Positions 16,716-62,420 of a stretch of DNA of 64,000 nucleotides are shown here, piece after piece; position 1 is the first letter of the stretch, and every line of letters starts with the position of its first letter. Made by a program: the position numbers and the translations under genes. Source of the DNA: Collybiopsis luxurians FD-317 M1 (lineage: Eukaryota > Basidiomycota > Agaricomycetes > Agaricales > Omphalotaceae); assembly GCA_000827265.1 (NCBI GenBank), contig KN834809.1:159312-223311 (forward strand), in the 5' to 3' direction. Under the pieces are notes generated by a model. It did no database searches. It was not told where the DNA came from and saw only the letters and a list, made by a program, of their open reading frames with translations.

Positions 16716-18345
16716 GCTTCCTAGGCTACCTGGTAGACCCAGGATGCCAGAGTTGCCCAAGGTTGCCAGGAGACACCCCCCAAATCCTGTGCACACTCAG
16801 GCAAATTAAAGTAGCCCAAGGTATCCTGGGAATCTTTGAGCAGCCCTGAGAGCTCCCTGAGTATCCCTGAGTATCCCTGAGCATCCCTGAGCATCCCTGA
16901 GCATCCCTGAGCATCCCTGGAAGGTATCTGCTTATGTTAAAATCAATCTTGTAACCCTAGATAAATATCTAAACCCCTGTATATCTCATCTCACATATGT
17001 TTTGNNNNNNNNNNNNNNNNNNNNNNNNNNNNNNNNNNNNNNNNNNNNNNNNNNNNNNNNNNNNNNNNNNNNNNNNNNNNNNNNNNNNNNNNNNNNNNNN
17101 NNNNNNNNNNNNNNNNNNNNNNNNNNNNNNNNNNNNNNNNNNNNNNNNNNNNNNNNNNNNNNNNNNNNNNNNNNNNNNNNNNNNNNNNNNNNNNNNNNNN
17201 NNNNNNNNNNNNNNNNNNNNNNNNNNNNNNNNNNNNNNNNNNNNNNNNNNNNNNNNNNNNNNNNNNNNNNNNNNNNNNNNNNNNNCCCTCGTATATCTCA
17301 TCTCACATATGTTTTGAGAGCAACAAGGAATATATGTTAACTTGATTACATAATACAACAGTAGAAATATAACTCAAAGATGAGATGGGTAAGTAGACAG
17401 ATATTCAGTAAGCAGGAAAGTAAATGCAGTGTCAAGAAGATCAATCTAAGGTGATTAATCAGTATTAAAGAAGGGGAAAAAAAGACAAGAACTCATCCTA
17501 GATAATAGCCCTCCTCTCTACACAGGTCCTTGCCCTCAGACAGCAATATAGGCTTCAGGTGTGAATGTAGAATGCACAAAATGAATCTAAGATATTCAAT
17601 AAGCATAAGGAATCAAAAAAGTGATAGAAAGCTCACCAGGGCATGTTCTATTCCATCCAGTAGATAGTCAAAAACTTGCCCTAATCCTCCTTAATGTCTC
17701 TCAGCATCCAAGACTATGCTATTTCTCAGAGATATAGCATAAGAAATAAGAGATGAAAAGTATAGGGCAGCTGAAGTTCATTAGACATGGTAGTTAAGGG
17801 AAGAGAAGGAATGGGGTCAAAAAGAGGGCGTGCATAAAATTTCAACCAAAAGTCATGTGATGTCATGTGCTCAAGCCCACAAGCAGGTGATTGTCATTTT
17901 TTAAATAAAAAATCATGCCACTTCTTTAATTTCAAAAATCATGTCATTTTTTAAAAAAATTTCTGTGACAAGGCACCACTCTGTGAGTGTAATGACTTAA
18001 AACTATTATTCATACTTGGAGCAAAGGGTGTGTAATCAGCATAATTAAGCACAAGTTCATGTGTTCATGCCAAAAGATATTTCAAGTTATGGCCCATTAA
18101 TTGTGCCAATGCTGAGAACAAGTTTTTCATATAAATTTTACATTATGTTTCAGGTACACCAATATATCTCCCAGGGGTGCCCAGGGATACCCAGGGATAC
18201 CCAGGGATGGCCCAGGGATGGCCCAGGGATGATCCAGGGACTCTCAGGGAGACCAGGATTTGGACAAAAACCTGGGTAGCCCTGGCAAACTAGGCTGCCT
18301 AGAAGGCCCAAGATTACTCAGGATTTGGCAAAATTCCTGGGTTAG
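16690..18345. mobile_element. Nested non-autonomous element with inverted repeat arrays
   Basis: Left end: a tandem array of the 10-mer TGAGCATCCC near 16845-16920. Right end: an inverted array of CCCAGGGATAC/GG units near 18168-18240. Outside these arrays the two ends also resemble each other in inverted orientation (CTAGGCTACCTGG near 16720; the complement of CTAGGCAGCCTAG near 18290-18305). No coding capacity is seen between them. It separates the two parts of the integrase relic. Exact ends and target duplication cannot be fixed by eye. Confidence 0.5.
17005..17285. other. Assembly gap (run of N)
   Basis: 281 N. Near-identical sequence (GTATATCTCATCTCACATATGTTTTG begins on both sides, near 16979 and 17290) flanks it, so the gap may be a collapsed or artefactual tandem duplication. 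Confidence 0.95.
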
Positions 18346-55539: not shown

Positions 55540-56267
55540 ATGTGTTTGACGCTTCATTCTACAAATGGAAGGTATCCAAGCAGACGGACCTAAAATTAGG
55601 TGCGCAGGTCATTTTTTCCCTGGATTAGTCTTTTCCCTTACCATCGTACGTCAGGATCTCACTTCGAAGCCAGATCGTTGGCGATCTTCATCCACTTCTG
55701 GCTCTAACGGCACCTGCCCATACCCGAACCAGGCTATACCTGATCCTTGTAGGGGGGACCTACACCTATTTACGGCGATACTTCGTCGGGTGCCCTACTA
55801 GAGACTGTACTCTGGCTCTCTTTTTAGCAACCTGTTTGACGAATGAAAAAAAGTATTTTATCGGTTCTAGGTCTTTAATCTGTGCCTGTTACAGGATTAG
55901 TGCTTTTGCAAATCGGTTGCGGGATAGATTTTATATCGTGTGTCGTACGGAAGATGAGACCCACATCAGAATGGAAGTAGGCTAACGTAGCTGCTGAACG
56001 TTCAAGTCAACCCGAGTTCAAACAATACCATATTCAAACGAGTATTCCAATTCACGACATATAGTGTTGTCTGTTTATATCAGTACACAATTCTACACTA
56101 CACAAACGACAACACTCTGATATCCTACGACTATGACTTCGTAAACCGCCCGCGAACAACGACGTACGATAGGAATAAAATCAGAAAACAAAACAGCGAC
56201 GAAATAAATCATGGAAAGGATAAGCAGACAGATATGATCCAAATTCACAGAGTCACAGAGCAAGTCG
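55540..56267. other. Intergenic; contains duplicated 3' UTR sequence
   Basis: No gene. The part 56070-56267 resembles 58880-59257 downstream of the bZIP gene (for example ACACTACACAAACGACA against ACACTACATAAACGACA), so the duplication that made the kinase tail included 3' flank. Confidence 0.5.
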
Positions 56268-58183
56268 TCAACTCACTCCCTCATCGCCGTCGAACCTAAA
56301 GTCGATGGAATGACTCCTCAGGATCTCCTGGAGGGTTTCAGCTCTTGTCTTCCACTGCTCCAATTCCATTTTCAGCTCATCGACTCGCAATTGCAACACA
56401 CGCGTATACTCCAGCTTCCTCCTCCTGCTCCTCCTAGCCGCAATCGAATTCTGACGACGCTTGTACTCGATCTTCTCTAGCTCCGTCGCATCAGGACCTG
56501 GAGCTGCCATAACAACTTCTTCGCCGTCATCTTCGTCATTATCGCCGAACGCTGCTGTGCGCGTTCCATGTACAGACTGCAAGATATCATGTATCTCATA
56601 TGATGAAGGACGGTCTTCCACAGTCTGAGCCCAGCAACGTGTAGTGAGATCCCAGATATCATCTGGACACCAAACATCCTGGGGCCTTGTAGGTCTGCCG
56701 CCATTCATCACTTGGAACATGACATTATAATCGGTCTTACAGTCGTGAAAGGGCAACTTTTGAGTGAGGATCTGAAATAAGTGCGCCGGACGTGAATTCA
56801 AGAACGAAGTGAGGTGAACAGGCTCATTATACCTCGACAATAGTGCAACCAAATGCATATACGTCTCTGGATGTGTGATTAGGACCCGAGCTGGAAACAT
56901 ACTCTGGAGCCAACCAACGCATGGAACCTTTGGTGGTGGACCACACTTGTGAGTTAGTAGTGACCAATGTTAAACCAAAGTCAGCCAGGCAACAGTGAAG
57001 ATCGTTTTTAACCAGAATATTGCCCTGAAATTATCCTCAGCCAACAATCAATCGGGGTAACAACGTACGCACCCCGCGTATATCACCATGAATTAAAGGG
57101 GGGTCTCTGGTATGTAGATAATGCAGGCCAGCTGCGATTTCGCGAAGCTGCGGAACACCATGATTATCATGTCGAACATGGAATGTATAGTCTCTGTGCA
57201 CATACAATAGAAGGTAAACTGTGCTGTAGATTCCCCTTCTTCAAAAGCGTAATGATATCTCTGTTTTCCATCCAGGGTGAAATGAGGCAGAACGATGGAT
57301 GAAAGAGATCTATATTAACGCCGAGTAAAGGAAGAATGTTGGGATGGTGTAGCTGGCGCCAGACCAAGGCTTCGTGGCAGAATTGCTGTGAAGTTCGTAA
57401 AGCCTTCTATAGGTCCGTTTCGAGGGAAAAGAAGTAAATTGACCAACCTCACGAATCTTATTGCGAGCCGTTTCATCTTGCTCGAGGGTAAGCCGAAGGA
57501 CCTTCAAACATACGTGTTTTTCGTTTAGGGTCCCGCGCCAAATATCCTACTTGCTATCCGTTAGCACGGCACCTTTGATGCTACGCATATGAAATGGACT
57601 CGCTGCAAATCCACCGCCCGCAACCGGGTTTTGACCTTCTCGTCTAATGTCGCGGATAACCAATGATAAAGGTAAAATCTGGAACCTCCGTGAGAGATGA
57701 CGAAGAAGGCCAAAGTACTTTTCGTAATCCTCCGAGCTGTCCTGTTCAGAATCCAAGATCTAGATGAAAACGAGCGTCTGAGTTTTTTATTTTGTGGTTT
57801 TGACTGGTTTTGGCTAAGGACTTGCCGATTGTAAGTGGTCCACCAATTGCTGGGCCATATGCGGCTCAAGCCATTGAAAACGCAAACTCCGATTTTGCTT
57901 CTGAGCGTCGTATTCTAACAGCGCACATCGGAGAAGGTCCTGGATAGTGCTTTCATTAGTCGGTTCCGAGTCCACGGGTCCTACGGCGGTGATGAAGCTC
58001 GACGTCGATTCCATTTCGGAGACTATACGAAGATTTGCAAAAGTTTCCGCCGTCTTTCAAAATTAAGCGCATCCCTGACATACCGTTGTTCACCATCTGC
58101 TCGAAGATCTGTCCCTGCCTCATCTCATAGTCATGATCCACTGTCCCGCATGTGGACTCGTGGCCAGTGTCCCGGTCGGCCAT
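56268..58183 (-). CDS. Protein kinase fused to a C-terminal bZIP domain
   Basis: Exons 58084..58183, 57826..58022, 57604..57759, 57448..57546, 57206..57385, 57073..57147, 56833..57024 and 56268..56771, 500 aa. Residues 1-145 are a helical N-terminal region. Kinase core: glycine loop GGGFA (147-151), Lys166 in VCLKVLR, catalytic IHGDIRG (Asp266), Asn271, DFG (284-286), WLAPEYV and DVYAFG, so activity is expected; the HGD loop is typical of expanded mushroom kinases. After the kinase C-lobe (RPSSYEIHDILQS) the frame continues without a break into TRTAAFGD (about residue 403) and a complete bZIP: basic region KRRQNSIAARRSRRRKLE with invariant Asn441, then a leucine zipper to about 490. Introns at 57760..57825 and 57547..57603 are GC-AG. 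The tail matches the neighbouring Gcn4-like gene. Confidence 0.8.
57547..57603 (-). other. GC-AG intron in the kinase glycine loop
   Basis: Donor GCA|gcgagt, branch-like CTAAC, acceptor aagtag. Splicing restores GGGFADIWRG; retention gives a stop (TAG) at the acceptor. Confidence 0.7.
57760..57825 (-). other. GC-AG intron in kinase N-terminal region
   Basis: Donor TCG|gcaagt, acceptor catctag, 66 nt. A GT donor two bases away would put the next exon out of frame. Confidence 0.7.
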
Positions 58184-59257
58184 GATACCAAATTGCTTCT
58201 TGAGAAGTTATCTCGCGAGTAGCCACTGCATGAGCAGCGGCGCGTATAGTCGATGGAGGTGAGACTTGGGGGGTGGAAATAATGGACGCAGCGAATTGCT
58301 GTGCAGCCACCCTGCACATACAGCTTTCATTCACCAGCGGCACACACTCGAGTATAGAATTAACAGCAGTCACTGAATGGTAATTCCTGTAATAGAACAT
58401 CTACGCCGCCTATGAGATATAAAACCTTTGAGCGAGGATAGACAAGGCCCCGCGGATCATTTAAGTACCCTGCATAATTCTCTTTGCTTACTGTAACCTC
58501 CAGATCGCTGATATGAATTCAGATCGTTCATGGTCTTCACCCCCATAGCTAGCGGCCCTAATGCATACTTGAATTATACTCCGAATTCTTAAAGGGAAAC
58601 TGTCACCTAGTGACACTGTCGGCTTCTCTAGATCTAGGGTGCGGTATACTTGACTAATAAAAGTAGTGTCTGTCGCTCGCTGAACACGTTCAGGGAGAGC
58701 TTCAACAAGCTTAAGTCGCGTGAATGAACTTTTTTCCTGTTGCTGGAAGGAAGTCAGATTGAAAGTAGCTGCTAGCGAATTGTAAACACTCAAGCAAAAG
58801 CAAAAGTTTTCTTTTTTGAAATCAAACTCGAATTGACGAATCACAACACATACTGTTCTGTTCATTACAAGAAACAGCTGTACACTACATAAACGACACA
58901 CACAACACATGGAACATACTACTACGACTAACAAACTTTCCACTTCGATAACAGCTATAACCTTCAAGTTTAAGTACATACGGGGTCATAACATGGCAAA
59001 ACTAGGGAAATGGAGACGTGGGGATGAGGGATACGACGATGCTCGAAGGAAATGGTGAGTGGAGGGAAAGAGTGATCTAGAAATACACGAGCATCGGAGA
59101 GGACTTTTCACTAAACAAAAATGAGAAGGTGAAGAAAATCGAAACCGATACGAGTCGGTGGTATAATAGGGATGAAACAAAAAATTTAAACGACGGAATA
59201 AAAGAAAGCATAGAACGATGATCCAGATTATTATCCAGATTCACCGCAGCGACTCAC

Positions 59258-60856
59258 TCACTCGTCATCGTCGAACCTAAAGTCAACCGAATGACTCCTG
59301 AGCATCTCCTGAAGGACCTTACACCTGGTCCTCCACTTCTCTGACTCCCTTTCCAACTCGTCGACTCGTGACTCGAGCATAAGCTTATGCTCCAACTTCC
59401 TCCTCCTGCTTTTCCTAGCCGCAATCGTGCTCAGACGACGCTTGTACTCGATCTTCTCCAATTCCGTCGCACCAGGACCGGGAGCTTCTGCGGGAGCCTC
59501 CTCGACGTCCTCTTCATCGGCGAACGCCACTGTGCGCGAACGCTTCTTGGCGAACGAAGCAGGAACTTCTTTGCGGGAGGTAGAAGAGGGAGTGAGATAT
59601 CGGCGAGTTTGCGTCGGAGCATCGAGCGGAACAAGGTTATCAGGGGTGATGTTGCGACGGGTACCAGTCGCAACTGTAGAGGGTAGGGAAGCTGACACCT
59701 TTCGAGGAGCTGGCGGAGGAGCAGCGGGAGTCGATTGGACGGCGGTAGGAGGCGATACGGTGAGAGAAGGAAGGCGGGGAGACGGGTATAGGCTGTGTAC
59801 AGAGTCGAGCATTGGAGTGGCAGGCGACAACGTAAACAAATTCTTGTTATTCAGGATCTCGGCTGCGGTAGTGACAGGCGCTGCCTCCTTGACAGGTTCC
59901 TCGAGCATCTTGTACAGCGCCGACGCAGGATCGTTGAATAGCGGCTCGTTACTGCCGTTGGACATCCAGCCTAGCTCGTCGTCAAGGACATCCATGATAG
60001 GTGTGGAAAGGTCAGGAGCGAAAGGAGAATCATCCATTGGCGACGTGCTGAAGTCGTCGTACGGAGTGTTGAGGAATGGGGAGGAAAGGAAGTCGCTGGC
60101 CATGGTGAATTCTGGAGAGGCTGAGCCCTCCGAGTCAGCAAGATACGAATATGATGACACTGGAGAGGTTGTACCTAACATAGTTTCAAGAGCAGCTTGA
60201 AGGGCCGCGGCCTGGTCCTCAACCTGAGGAGGTGCAGGCGCGGCCATTTCTACTCGTTCGTTGGTGGTAGACATATTGGTATCAGGTGTGGGGGTTGAAA
60301 TATTATCCGATGGTTTATGGGCAAGCATTGATAAATAGTTGCGGCTGAGAGACTCAAAGTCGGGCAGCATTTCGTTTGATTTGGCTACAGTACGTGGTGT
60401 AGTACGAGGTGGCCGAGGCAGTAATTGTGGAATGCCATAGTGGGCAGCTAGTGAATTCACCGGTGAAGGCGATTGTGAAGCATCAGGAGATCCAGGACCA
60501 TTGTGCAAAGCCGTAGACGGGTTGGGAGAAGCAGCCGAGTTATTCAGAGGAGTCGGAACATCTTGGCTCGTGTTGAATTTGTGAGTGGACTGCGATGAGG
60601 CTGGAATTGCGAAGAGGTTTAAATTGGGTCTAGGCAAGGTTATAGTAGGCACGTTTGGCGGCGGCGACCTGGGAATTCTGTGACCATGATGTGTCAGTTC
60701 TGATTCGCTTTCAAAAATCGGATAGCCTGGCTCTGGCTGGATTATAGATGATGAAAGCAAGACAGATGGGGAATGTTCCCATCGATATACTTTTGAGTCT
60801 GACTCCATTTTATCTCGACTTTGGATTTCCGCTACCGATGAGGTGCGCAGAAACAT
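59258..60856 (-). CDS. Gcn4/Cpc1-like bZIP transcription factor
   Basis: Single exon, 532 aa from the first ATG, or 516 aa from the second (60808, context AAAATGG). The N-terminal and middle parts are Pro/Ser-rich with acidic activation-type segments (PMDDSPFAPDLSTPIMDVLD, DELGWMS). The C-terminal bZIP occupies about residues 460-520: KRRLSTIAARKSRRRKLE plus zipper, ending LRSHSVDFRFDDDE. By position and architecture it is the cross-pathway amino-acid control activator. The normally invariant Asn of the basic region is Ser476 here, while the duplicate in the kinase fusion keeps Asn. It lies 1.07 kb upstream of that fusion, same strand. Confidence 0.82.
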   Translation of the reverse strand: MFLRTSSVAEIQSRDKMESDSKVYRWEHSPSVLLSSSIIQPEPGYPIFESESELTHHGHRIPRSPPPNVPTITLPRPNLNLFAIPASSQSTHKFNTSQDVPTPLNNSAASPNPSTALHNGPGSPDASQSPSPVNSLAAHYGIPQLLPRPPRTTPRTVAKSNEMLPDFESLSRNYLSMLAHKPSDNISTPTPDTNMSTTNERVEMAAPAPPQVEDQAAALQAALETMLGTTSPVSSYSYLADSEGSASPEFTMASDFLSSPFLNTPYDDFSTSPMDDSPFAPDLSTPIMDVLDDELGWMSNGSNEPLFNDPASALYKMLEEPVKEAAPVTTAAEILNNKNLFTLSPATPMLDSVHSLYPSPRLPSLTVSPPTAVQSTPAAPPPAPRKVSASLPSTVATGTRRNITPDNLVPLDAPTQTRRYLTPSSTSRKEVPASFAKKRSRTVAFADEEDVEEAPAEAPGPGATELEKIEYKRRLSTIAARKSRRRKLEHKLMLESRVDELERESEKWRTRCKVLQEMLRSHSVDFRFDDDE

Positions 60857-62332: not shown

Positions 62333-62420
62333 TGGCCAACGTGGGGATCGAACCCAAGACCTTCGCGTAACATAACATTGCATATTAGCACGACGCTCTA
62401 ACCAACTGAGCTAGTCGGCC
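62333..62420 (-). tRNA. tRNA-Ile (anticodon AAU) with 14-nt intron
   Basis: A cloverleaf can be drawn: acceptor GGCCGAC/GTTGGCC (one G-T pair, rest paired), D-arm GCTCAGTTGGTTAGAGC, anticodon stem TCGTG/CGCGA, loop CTAATAA with anticodon AAT at 62384-62386, T-arm with GGTTCGATCC. The 14-nt intron (62369..62382) sits after position 37, the usual site. A T7 run downstream (near 62303-62309 on the minus strand) is a plausible Pol III terminator. Confidence 0.88.

What the first reader, a model, noticed from the sequence alone, without database searches (positions are those of the whole stretch)
56268..60856. Kinase-bZIP fusion beside its apparent Gcn4-like parent
An intact-looking HGD-type kinase reads in frame into a full bZIP domain whose flanks (the RTxAF...E linker,, the APGPxATELEKIEYKRR lead-in, the SHSxDFRFD end and 3' UTR words) match the adjacent Gcn4/Cpc1-like gene. 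A tandem duplication that captured the 3' end of the bZIP gene is the simplest origin. A kinase that could dimerise with, or compete against, the amino-acid-control activator at its own sites would be a new signalling layout; I know of no described protein of this architecture.
Basis: partly seen in the sequence, partly recalled or inferred. Interest (0 to 1): 0.85.

Follow-up and report, generated by a model that had tools for sequence, protein, structure and literature searches.

The report
Mushroom kinase fused to Gcn4-like bZIP
In the mushroom Collybiopsis luxurians a protein kinase gene has picked up the DNA-binding end of a Gcn4-like regulator gene, and it is one of several kinase genes in this genome that carry pieces copied from other regulatory genes.

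Summary
The fusion is real at sequence level. An HGD-type kinase of eight exons (window 58183-56268, minus, 500 aa) reads inside its last exon, without a stop, into a whole Gcn4-type bZIP. The public model of Collybiopsis luxurians (GYMLUDRAFT_48095, partial) has the same architecture. The bZIP end matches the adjacent Gcn4-like gene (76% DNA), but a C17 copy matches equally well, so the exact parent is open. The gene is tripartite: its first exon and intron come from an isoleucyl-tRNA synthetase gene on C2. It is not alone. The same genome holds further chimeras of this kinase family with pieces of Gcn4-like, adenylate cyclase, eIF4G, Spa2 and Zn2Cys6 genes, with related gene copies found elsewhere. 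One tandem pair diverged after its fusion with Ka/Ks 0.31. Public models of relatives elsewhere carry homeodomain, WOPR (partial), RhoGAP or receiver domains. Expression and function are untested. I think most likely that the bZIP docks the kinase on Gcn4-like partners without an activation domain; bait/decoy and decaying-chimera readings stay open.

The parts
58023..58259 (-). 5' segment derived from an isoleucyl-tRNA synthetase gene (sequence before the start codon, exon 1 and intron 1)
   Evidence: 80% DNA identity to C2:1735523-1735765(-) over query 582-818; C2 pieces match ileS (TIGR00392) and tRNA-synt_1 best
58084..58183 (-). Exon 1 of the fusion gene (MADRDTG...MVNN), IleRS-derived, spliced in frame onto the kinase
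   Evidence: peptide alignment score 104 against a maximum of 40 in 2000 shuffles
57826..58022 (-). Exon 2: kinase leader; kinase-family DNA homology starts at its first base
57604..57759 (-). Exon 3, ends in the G-loop GGGFA; introns 2 and 3 on either side have GC donors
57448..57546 (-). Exon 4, VCLK lysine
57206..57385 (-). Exon 5 (acceptor as in public model P0001)
57073..57147 (-). Exon 6, HGD catalytic loop
56833..57024 (-). Exon 7, DFG and APE motifs
56268..56771 (-). Exon 8: kinase C-lobe end, junction, bZIP, stop
   Evidence: one open frame
56562..56573 (-). Junction VHGT between kinase (...EIHDILQS) and bZIP side (RTAAFGDND...)
   Evidence: homology to both the neighbour and C17:63k begins at 56563
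56322..56474 (-). bZIP_1 domain of the fusion (basic region NSIAARRSR, zipper d positions L-L-W-L)
56052..56115 (-). Weak 3' region patch similar to the neighbour's 58841-58903
   Evidence: BLAST E 2e-5 in a two-region comparison; not listed genome-wide
59258..60808 (-). Neighbour Gcn4-like gene, 516 aa from MESDSK, basic region LSTIAARKSR (Ser in place of Asn)
   Evidence: its bZIP_1 score is below the Pfam cut-off (21.8 against 27.6)

Best explanation
The locus is a genuine tripartite chimeric gene: (1) an exon and intron copied from an isoleucyl-tRNA synthetase gene, (2) an HGD-type kinase of the C82-array kind, (3) the 3' end of a Gcn4-like gene, from the neighbour or a close copy. Shown: anatomy, open frame, homology blocks, kinase motifs, matching public gene model. 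Inferred: it is translated as one protein; the bZIP, with its basic-region contacts kept and the activation region absent, dimerises with Gcn4-like paralogs and takes the kinase to their sites, so that it phosphorylates the partner or competes as an activator without an activation domain. It belongs to a wider set of kinases in this genome that have captured pieces of regulatory genes.
For: Open frame and domains; public model; breakpoints; parent of exon 1. Kinase motifs GGGFADIW, VCLK, CHEAL, HGDIRGGN, DFG, APE, SRDVYAFG present. Kinase Ka/Ks 0.121 over 358 codons against C82:99k. bZIP Ka/Ks 0.198 to the neighbour; 22 of 75 residues differ, against a neutral mean of 40.6 and minimum of 27 in 3000 runs at 0.375 changes per site. 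AlphaFold helix 430-486 at block pLDDT 81-94. Zipper g-e' tally: fusion homodimer 0, fusion-neighbour +2. Purifying selection after fusion in a sister chimera pair, Ka/Ks 0.31 over 395 codons.
Against: No transcript or protein evidence. The kinase-bZIP fusion was seen in one genome only: 1 of 29 hits and 1 of the 120 listed (of 433), both the gene itself. The bZIP branch is long (0.37 against 0.06 for the neighbour). Pairwise Ka/Ks cannot separate selection before and after the fusion. If the branch were only 0.2 changes per site, 22 differences would be ordinary (neutral mean 26.4, minimum 12), and an open frame by chance has probability 0.12-0.23. Two of seven introns have GC donors. The compared paralog C82:99k carries a stop. 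AlphaFold is unsure at 281-300, around the activation segment (68 and 49). The public model is partial. The neighbour's own homodimer tallies higher (+4).
Confidence: 0.45

Rival explanations
1. Integrated bait: the captured bZIP (like other captured pieces in this family) is a lure that senses interference with a conserved hub protein, and the kinase gives the alarm, as proposed for plant kinase fusion proteins and NLRs with integrated decoys.
For: Capture of pieces of conserved regulators (Gcn4-like, adenylate cyclase, eIF4G, Spa2, Zn2Cys6; in public models elsewhere WOPR, homeodomain, RhoGAP, receiver) with related genes kept elsewhere; model stated for wheat kinase fusions and for fungal NLRs; selection kept on both sides of one junction; one relative joins an NLR-type NPHP3_N domain to the kinase (P0108).
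Against: No known effector, partner or immune phenotype; captured pieces include one unlikely as bait (33 residues of IleRS); allelic diversity not tested.
Confidence: 0.22
2. A chance chimera without present function, made by gene shuffling in a duplication-rich kinase family and on its way to decay.
For: Single species; long bZIP branch; GC donors; a sibling kinase with a stop; truncated copies of Gcn4-like genes at C25 and C17:72k; public models P0029, P0031 and P0032 of sister chimeras lack the catalytic loop and DFG; simulation not decisive at short distance.
Against: All eight exons open; kinase Ka/Ks 0.121; bZIP changes fewer than neutral at the estimated distance; basic-region contacts intact.
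Confidence: 0.24
3. Two products or an annotation join: kinase transcripts end or splice before the bZIP, so no fused protein exists.
For: Two GC-donor introns; no RNA evidence; public model partial.
Against: The junction lies inside one exon with no stop between.
Confidence: 0.06
4. Assembly error at the join.
For: Similar tandem sequence about 3 kb apart; N-terminal pieces of Gcn4-like genes without bZIP exist at C25 (51% identity) and C17:72k (60-62%) and were not tested as the other half of this copy.
Against: The two copies are only 76% alike and no Ns lie nearby; kinase chimeras recur at other loci.
Confidence: 0.03

Closest known systems
Gcn4/Cpc1-type bZIP activators
   Same: Basic region and zipper spacing; C-terminal block shared with the neighbour
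   Different: No activation region; a kinase in its place; Trp at the third zipper d position (shared with neighbour and C17:63k), Leu at the central a position (Ser and Ala there)
Agaricomycete TK-related and TKL kinases (FslK of PMC3937382; TKL expansion in Laccaria, PMC2838846)
   Same: Kinase family expanded in mushroom fungi; catalytic motifs present
   Different: In the FslK paper 16 of 241 members have additional domains, listed in a supplement I did not see; membership of this kinase in FslK was not tested
Plant kinase fusion proteins such as Sr43, Lr9, Pm4 (PMC10260397)
   Same: Kinase fused to an unrelated domain; integrated-decoy model proposed there (passages)
   Different: Plant, resistance function shown; here fungal, partner parts are copies of the fungus's own genes, function unknown
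Fungal NLRs with candidate integrated decoys (PMC12258605)
   Same: Copy of a conserved self protein joined to a signalling protein (passages)
   Different: No nucleotide-binding domain in the window gene; here the kinase is the common part, there it is the candidate bait

Membership tests
bZIP transcription factor domain | Pfam bZIP_1 above its cut-off | tested here: met
   32.5 and 31.3 bits against 27.6
bZIP transcription factor domain | DNA-contact residues N..AA..S/C-R in the basic region | tested here: met
   NSIAARRSR in the fusion; the neighbour has Ser for Asn; the rule itself is recalled
Gcn4/Cpc1 activator | N-terminal activation region | tested here: not met
   Kinase in its place; homology stops at 56563
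Gcn4/Cpc1 activator | uORF-controlled leader | not tested
   Leader not examined
Active protein kinase | G-loop, Lys, alpha-C Glu, HxD, Asn, DFG, APE | tested here: met
   motif positions; Pfam 141 bits; roles of the motifs recalled
Active protein kinase | Catalysis | not testable with these tools
   needs an assay
FslK kinases | Placement in the FslK clade | not tested
   no FslK reference sequences were fetched
Integrated-decoy kinase fusion proteins | Kinase joined to a copy of another self gene, a related copy being kept | tested here: met
   window gene; also Gcn4-like, MIF4G, cyclase, Spa2 and Zn2Cys6 cases
Integrated-decoy kinase fusion proteins | Recognition of an effector with immune output | not testable with these tools
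   needs experiments

The most novel reading that the evidence does not exclude
The HGD kinases of Collybiopsis and its relatives are a fungal counterpart of plant kinase fusion proteins: a fast-shuffling kinase family in which many members carry a copied piece of a conserved regulator (bZIP, Gcn4-like activation region, adenylate cyclase, eIF4G, Spa2, Zn2Cys6, homeodomain, WOPR) as bait or docking module, forming an intracellular surveillance or allorecognition repertoire. The kinase-bZIP gene would guard amino-acid control.
Probability: 0.18. Interest if true: 0.92.

Novelty: new variant of a known kind. Interest (0 to 1): 0.76.

Why it matters
A kinase fused to the DNA-binding and dimerisation part of an amino-acid-control regulator would be a new signalling layout. 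More important, the locus exposes a mushroom kinase family that repeatedly captures pieces of its own genome's regulators, with related source genes found for several and one fused pair under purifying selection after its fusion. That makes the birth of signalling chimeras directly testable and offers a concrete candidate for kinase-based surveillance in fungi.

Tried and rejected
Assembly gap: the one N-run lies at 17005-17285. Orphan N-terminal half of the captured bZIP gene as a sign of misjoin: the 14 matches include whole paralogs, the C52:162k chimera, a truncated copy at C25 (51%) and short pieces at C17:72k (60-62%); none was tested as this copy's lost half, so the point is open. Asn regained versus retained: the tree without the trait columns leaves the fusion unresolved in a clade of 14 rows, holding the 11 Ser/Cys rows together is not rejected (p-AU 0.256), and two C17 copies (43k, 42k) also have Asn, so I make no claim; the first tree, which put the fusion outside the neighbour's group at 88/89, used the trait columns and is not relied on. 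Orthologs of the C52:162k chimera: one search gave 3 hits from 1781 candidates, each covering 36-50% of the queried region, so no public protein supports my exon model of it. My first exon-5 acceptor was dropped for the public model's. PH_10 in P0085 is below its cut-off (26.1 against 27.5) and PF27634 of P0053 was not found in my scan. The 14 control genomes gave 0 for PF00170; the collection is described as prokaryotic, so this says nothing. The ten paper searches listed no such protein by title or abstract; subscription papers and preprints are not held. No control family was run for the rate of annotated extra domains. On re-checking I lowered the best explanation from a drafted 0.47 to 0.45 and raised decay from 0.22 to 0.24, because of the simulation at 0.2 changes per site and the catalytic gaps in some sister models.
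Full report
What is there. On the minus strand of the window, exons 58183-58084, 58022-57826, 57759-57604, 57546-57448, 57385-57206, 57147-57073, 57024-56833 and 56771-56268 give a 500-residue protein. The public protein P0001, GYMLUDRAFT_48095 (partial) of Collybiopsis luxurians FD-317 M1, is the same without the final residue; its contig is 336946 bases, the length of G000:C61. Pfam finds a kinase at 145-396 (141 bits) and bZIP_1 at 433-483 (31.3 bits, cut-off 27.6). The join is inside exon 8, so it does not depend on an intron call. AlphaFold on a 58-row alignment gives kinase blocks of 77-97 pLDDT except 281-300 (68 and 49, around the activation segment) and a helix 430-486 across basic region and zipper at 81-94; residues 1-43 and about 411-420 are not confident.

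Three sources. (a) 3' end. Similarity to the neighbouring gene starts at 56563, inside the short linker VHGT, and runs to about 56271 at 76%; a weak further patch lies at 56052-56115 against 58841-58903. Against the whole genome this end gives six rows: itself, the neighbour (76%), C17:63k (76%), two rows at C17:43k (74%) and C17:42k (71%); the further patch was not listed there. Synonymous distances are 0.79 (neighbour), 0.84 (C17:63k) and 0.88 (neighbour to C17:63k), a near trichotomy. Adjacency and the weak patch favour the neighbour as source without proving it. (b) Kinase. The genome gave 202 matches to the kinase part (150 of 211 candidates scored), many in an array on C82; C82:99972-100445 is the first row. 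Over 358 codons the fusion and C82:99k have Ks 0.94, Ka 0.114, ratio 0.121; C82:99k has a stop in exon 5. (c) 5' end. Of 27 rows, eleven with kinase loci start at query 819-825, the start of exon 2, and others later; only a 46-base patch at C82:226754 (query 401-448) and the C2 row lie before it, apart from the gene itself. Query 582-818 (window 58259-58023) matches C2:1735523-1735765 at 80%. Pieces of the C2 gene match isoleucine--tRNA ligase best in NCBIfam (fragments, so below the full-length cut-off) and tRNA-synt_1 above its cut-off in Pfam. Exon 1 and intron 1 are thus IleRS exon and intron, spliced in frame onto the kinase. That an aminoacyl-tRNA synthetase piece, a kinase and a Gcn4-type bZIP meet in one gene recalls Gcn2-Gcn4 control (recalled), but 33 residues are no functional domain and I treat it as coincidence.

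The bZIP. One search gave 18 matches, which I read as the fusion, a canonical Gcn4-like gene (C10, QNT in the basic region), ten further Gcn4-like loci (C61 neighbour, three on C17, C8, C14, C7, C52, C37, C1), repeat rows of some of these, and three weak others. In the 23 rows the position of the Gcn4 Asn is Ser in the neighbour, C17:63k, C8, two C. confluens rows and two unnamed ones, Cys in four Lentinula rows, and Asn in the fusion, in C17:43k and C17:42k and in the remaining rows. Whether the fusion's Asn is retained or regained is unresolved (p-AU 0.256). The fusion branch is long (0.37 against 0.06). Arithmetic gives about Ka 0.14 and Ks 0.38 for the fusion branch, a ratio near 0.4. The fusion differs from the neighbour at 22 of 75 residues. 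Neutral runs, 3000 each, gave means of 40.6, 35.3 and 26.4 changes with minima of 27, 21 and 12 at 0.375, 0.3 and 0.2 changes per site; a stop-free frame had probability 0.12, 0.15 and 0.23. So constraint is likely at the estimated distance, but this cannot tell selection before the fusion from selection after it. Charges at g and e' positions tally 0 for the fusion homodimer, +2 for fusion-neighbour and +4 for the neighbour homodimer: heterodimers are possible but not favoured over the neighbour's homodimer.

Not alone. Searching the neighbour's N-terminal part in the genome (14 matches) led to C52:162 kb, where the N-terminal half of a Gcn4-like gene reads in frame into a kinase of the same family: 626 aa, seven GT-AG introns, no bZIP, the reverse arrangement of the window gene. 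This exon model is mine; no public protein matched it. Its captured half is 51% identical to C52:286 kb over 246 columns, against 32% and less to the neighbour, C17:63k, C10 and C8. C4:26899-27567 lies in one 387-residue frame with a kinase tail (19.5 bits, under the 23.1 cut-off, as only the tail is in that exon) and MIF4G (136 bits); C6, 78% alike, has MIF4G and an eIF_4G1 match just under its cut-off. C23 has two tandem frames with PP2C (152 and 158 bits) and C11 one with a cyclase catalytic domain (64 bits); each runs into the same kinase leader, and their relatives, C22:681728-682690 (75%) and C22:682754-683485 (60%), lie next to each other with an 809-residue frame reported for both, hence my name adenylate cyclase. 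C52:157.5 kb joins a Spa2-like part (GIT_SHD in P0031; relative at C3:325 kb, 57-86% by piece) and C12:959.6 kb a Zn2Cys6 part (relative at C40, 72-83%) to the leader in one frame. At C42:33.5 kb the Zn2Cys6 join depends on an intron of the public model P0030 (relative at C101, 77%). Kinase matches follow at these loci. I did not build kinase models there, and public models P0029, P0031 and P0032 lack the catalytic loop and DFG, so some may be incomplete or mis-modelled. The C23 pair shares its junction region, so I take its divergence as later than the fusion: Ks 0.434, Ka 0.136, ratio 0.31 over 395 codons, 0.22 in the PP2C core and 0.25 in the 48-codon kinase leader. At least this chimera has been kept as a protein.

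Other species. Of the 120 listed of 433 kinase relatives, 16 carry a non-kinase Pfam domain by precomputed annotation (my count from the listing, leaving out kinase-like models and the uncertain PF19974 of P0068). I rescanned all 16: 14 have an extra domain over the curated cut-off, P0085 does not, and P0053's was not found. Six of the 120 carry DNA-binding domains: bZIP (P0001), Zn_clus (P0030, P0062), Gti1_Pac2, profile positions 1-91 of 168 (P0070, C. confluens), Homeodomain (P0093) and Homeobox_KN (P0123) (both Desarmillaria tabescens). For other species gene-model joins cannot be excluded, since their DNA was not read. P0001 is the only one of these 120, and of the 29 hits, listed with both kinase and bZIP; 313 hits were not shown.

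Literature. The FslK paper says that 16 of 241 members have additional domains (PMC3937382, passages and sections 6, 7 and 9). Laccaria has a large TKL expansion, and Fungal_trans is named among domains seen once in the fungal kinomes studied there (PMC2838846, passages). Wheat kinase fusion proteins have been proposed to carry integrated decoys (PMC10260397, passages); fungal NLRs may carry them too (PMC12258605, passages). Searches listed no kinase-bZIP protein by title or abstract. One search served the plant comparison.

Judgement. Function is inference: docking on Gcn4-like partners (0.45 with the gene's reality included), integrated bait (0.22), non-functional chimera (0.24).

Noticed in passing
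L061 6267-3988 (G000:C52 about 163266-160987, minus): Reverse chimera: N-terminal half of a Gcn4-like gene reads in frame into an HGD kinase, 626 aa by my own exon model, no bZIP.
   Followed up: partly
G000:C4:26899-27567 (L077): Kinase tail exon reads in frame into MIF4G; eIF4G-like relative at C6.
   Followed up: partly
G000:C23:434.6 kb and 444 kb (L072, L076): Tandem PP2C (adenylate-cyclase-like) to kinase chimeras, Ka/Ks 0.31; a further copy of the PP2C part at C23:455.8 kb without a kinase-leader match in that row.
   Followed up: partly
G000:C11:494267-495166 (L074): Cyclase catalytic domain joined to the kinase leader, with Spa2-like matches just upstream at 493.3-493.8 kb, perhaps a further part.
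   Followed up: no
G000:C52:175 kb (L075): Long repeat-bearing N-terminal frame of unknown origin joined to the kinase leader.
   Followed up: no
P0070 (Collybiopsis confluens), P0093 and P0123 (Desarmillaria tabescens), P0108 (Armillaria novae-zelandiae), P0133 (unnamed source): Same kinase family with WOPR (partial), homeodomain, Homeobox_KN, NPHP3_N and receiver domains in public models.
   Followed up: no
G000:C7:320 kb (L019, L026): A Gcn4-like gene with two bZIP-like segments in one open frame.
   Followed up: no
window 57825-57760 and 57603-57547: Introns 2 and 3 have GC donors; at intron 3 the C82:99k and C52:162k relatives have GT, and C52:162k has GT at intron 2 too.
   Followed up: partly
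window 62333-62420, minus: One tRNA gene with undetermined anticodon by ARAGORN; a similar sequence lies about 400 bases on (by eye).
   Followed up: no
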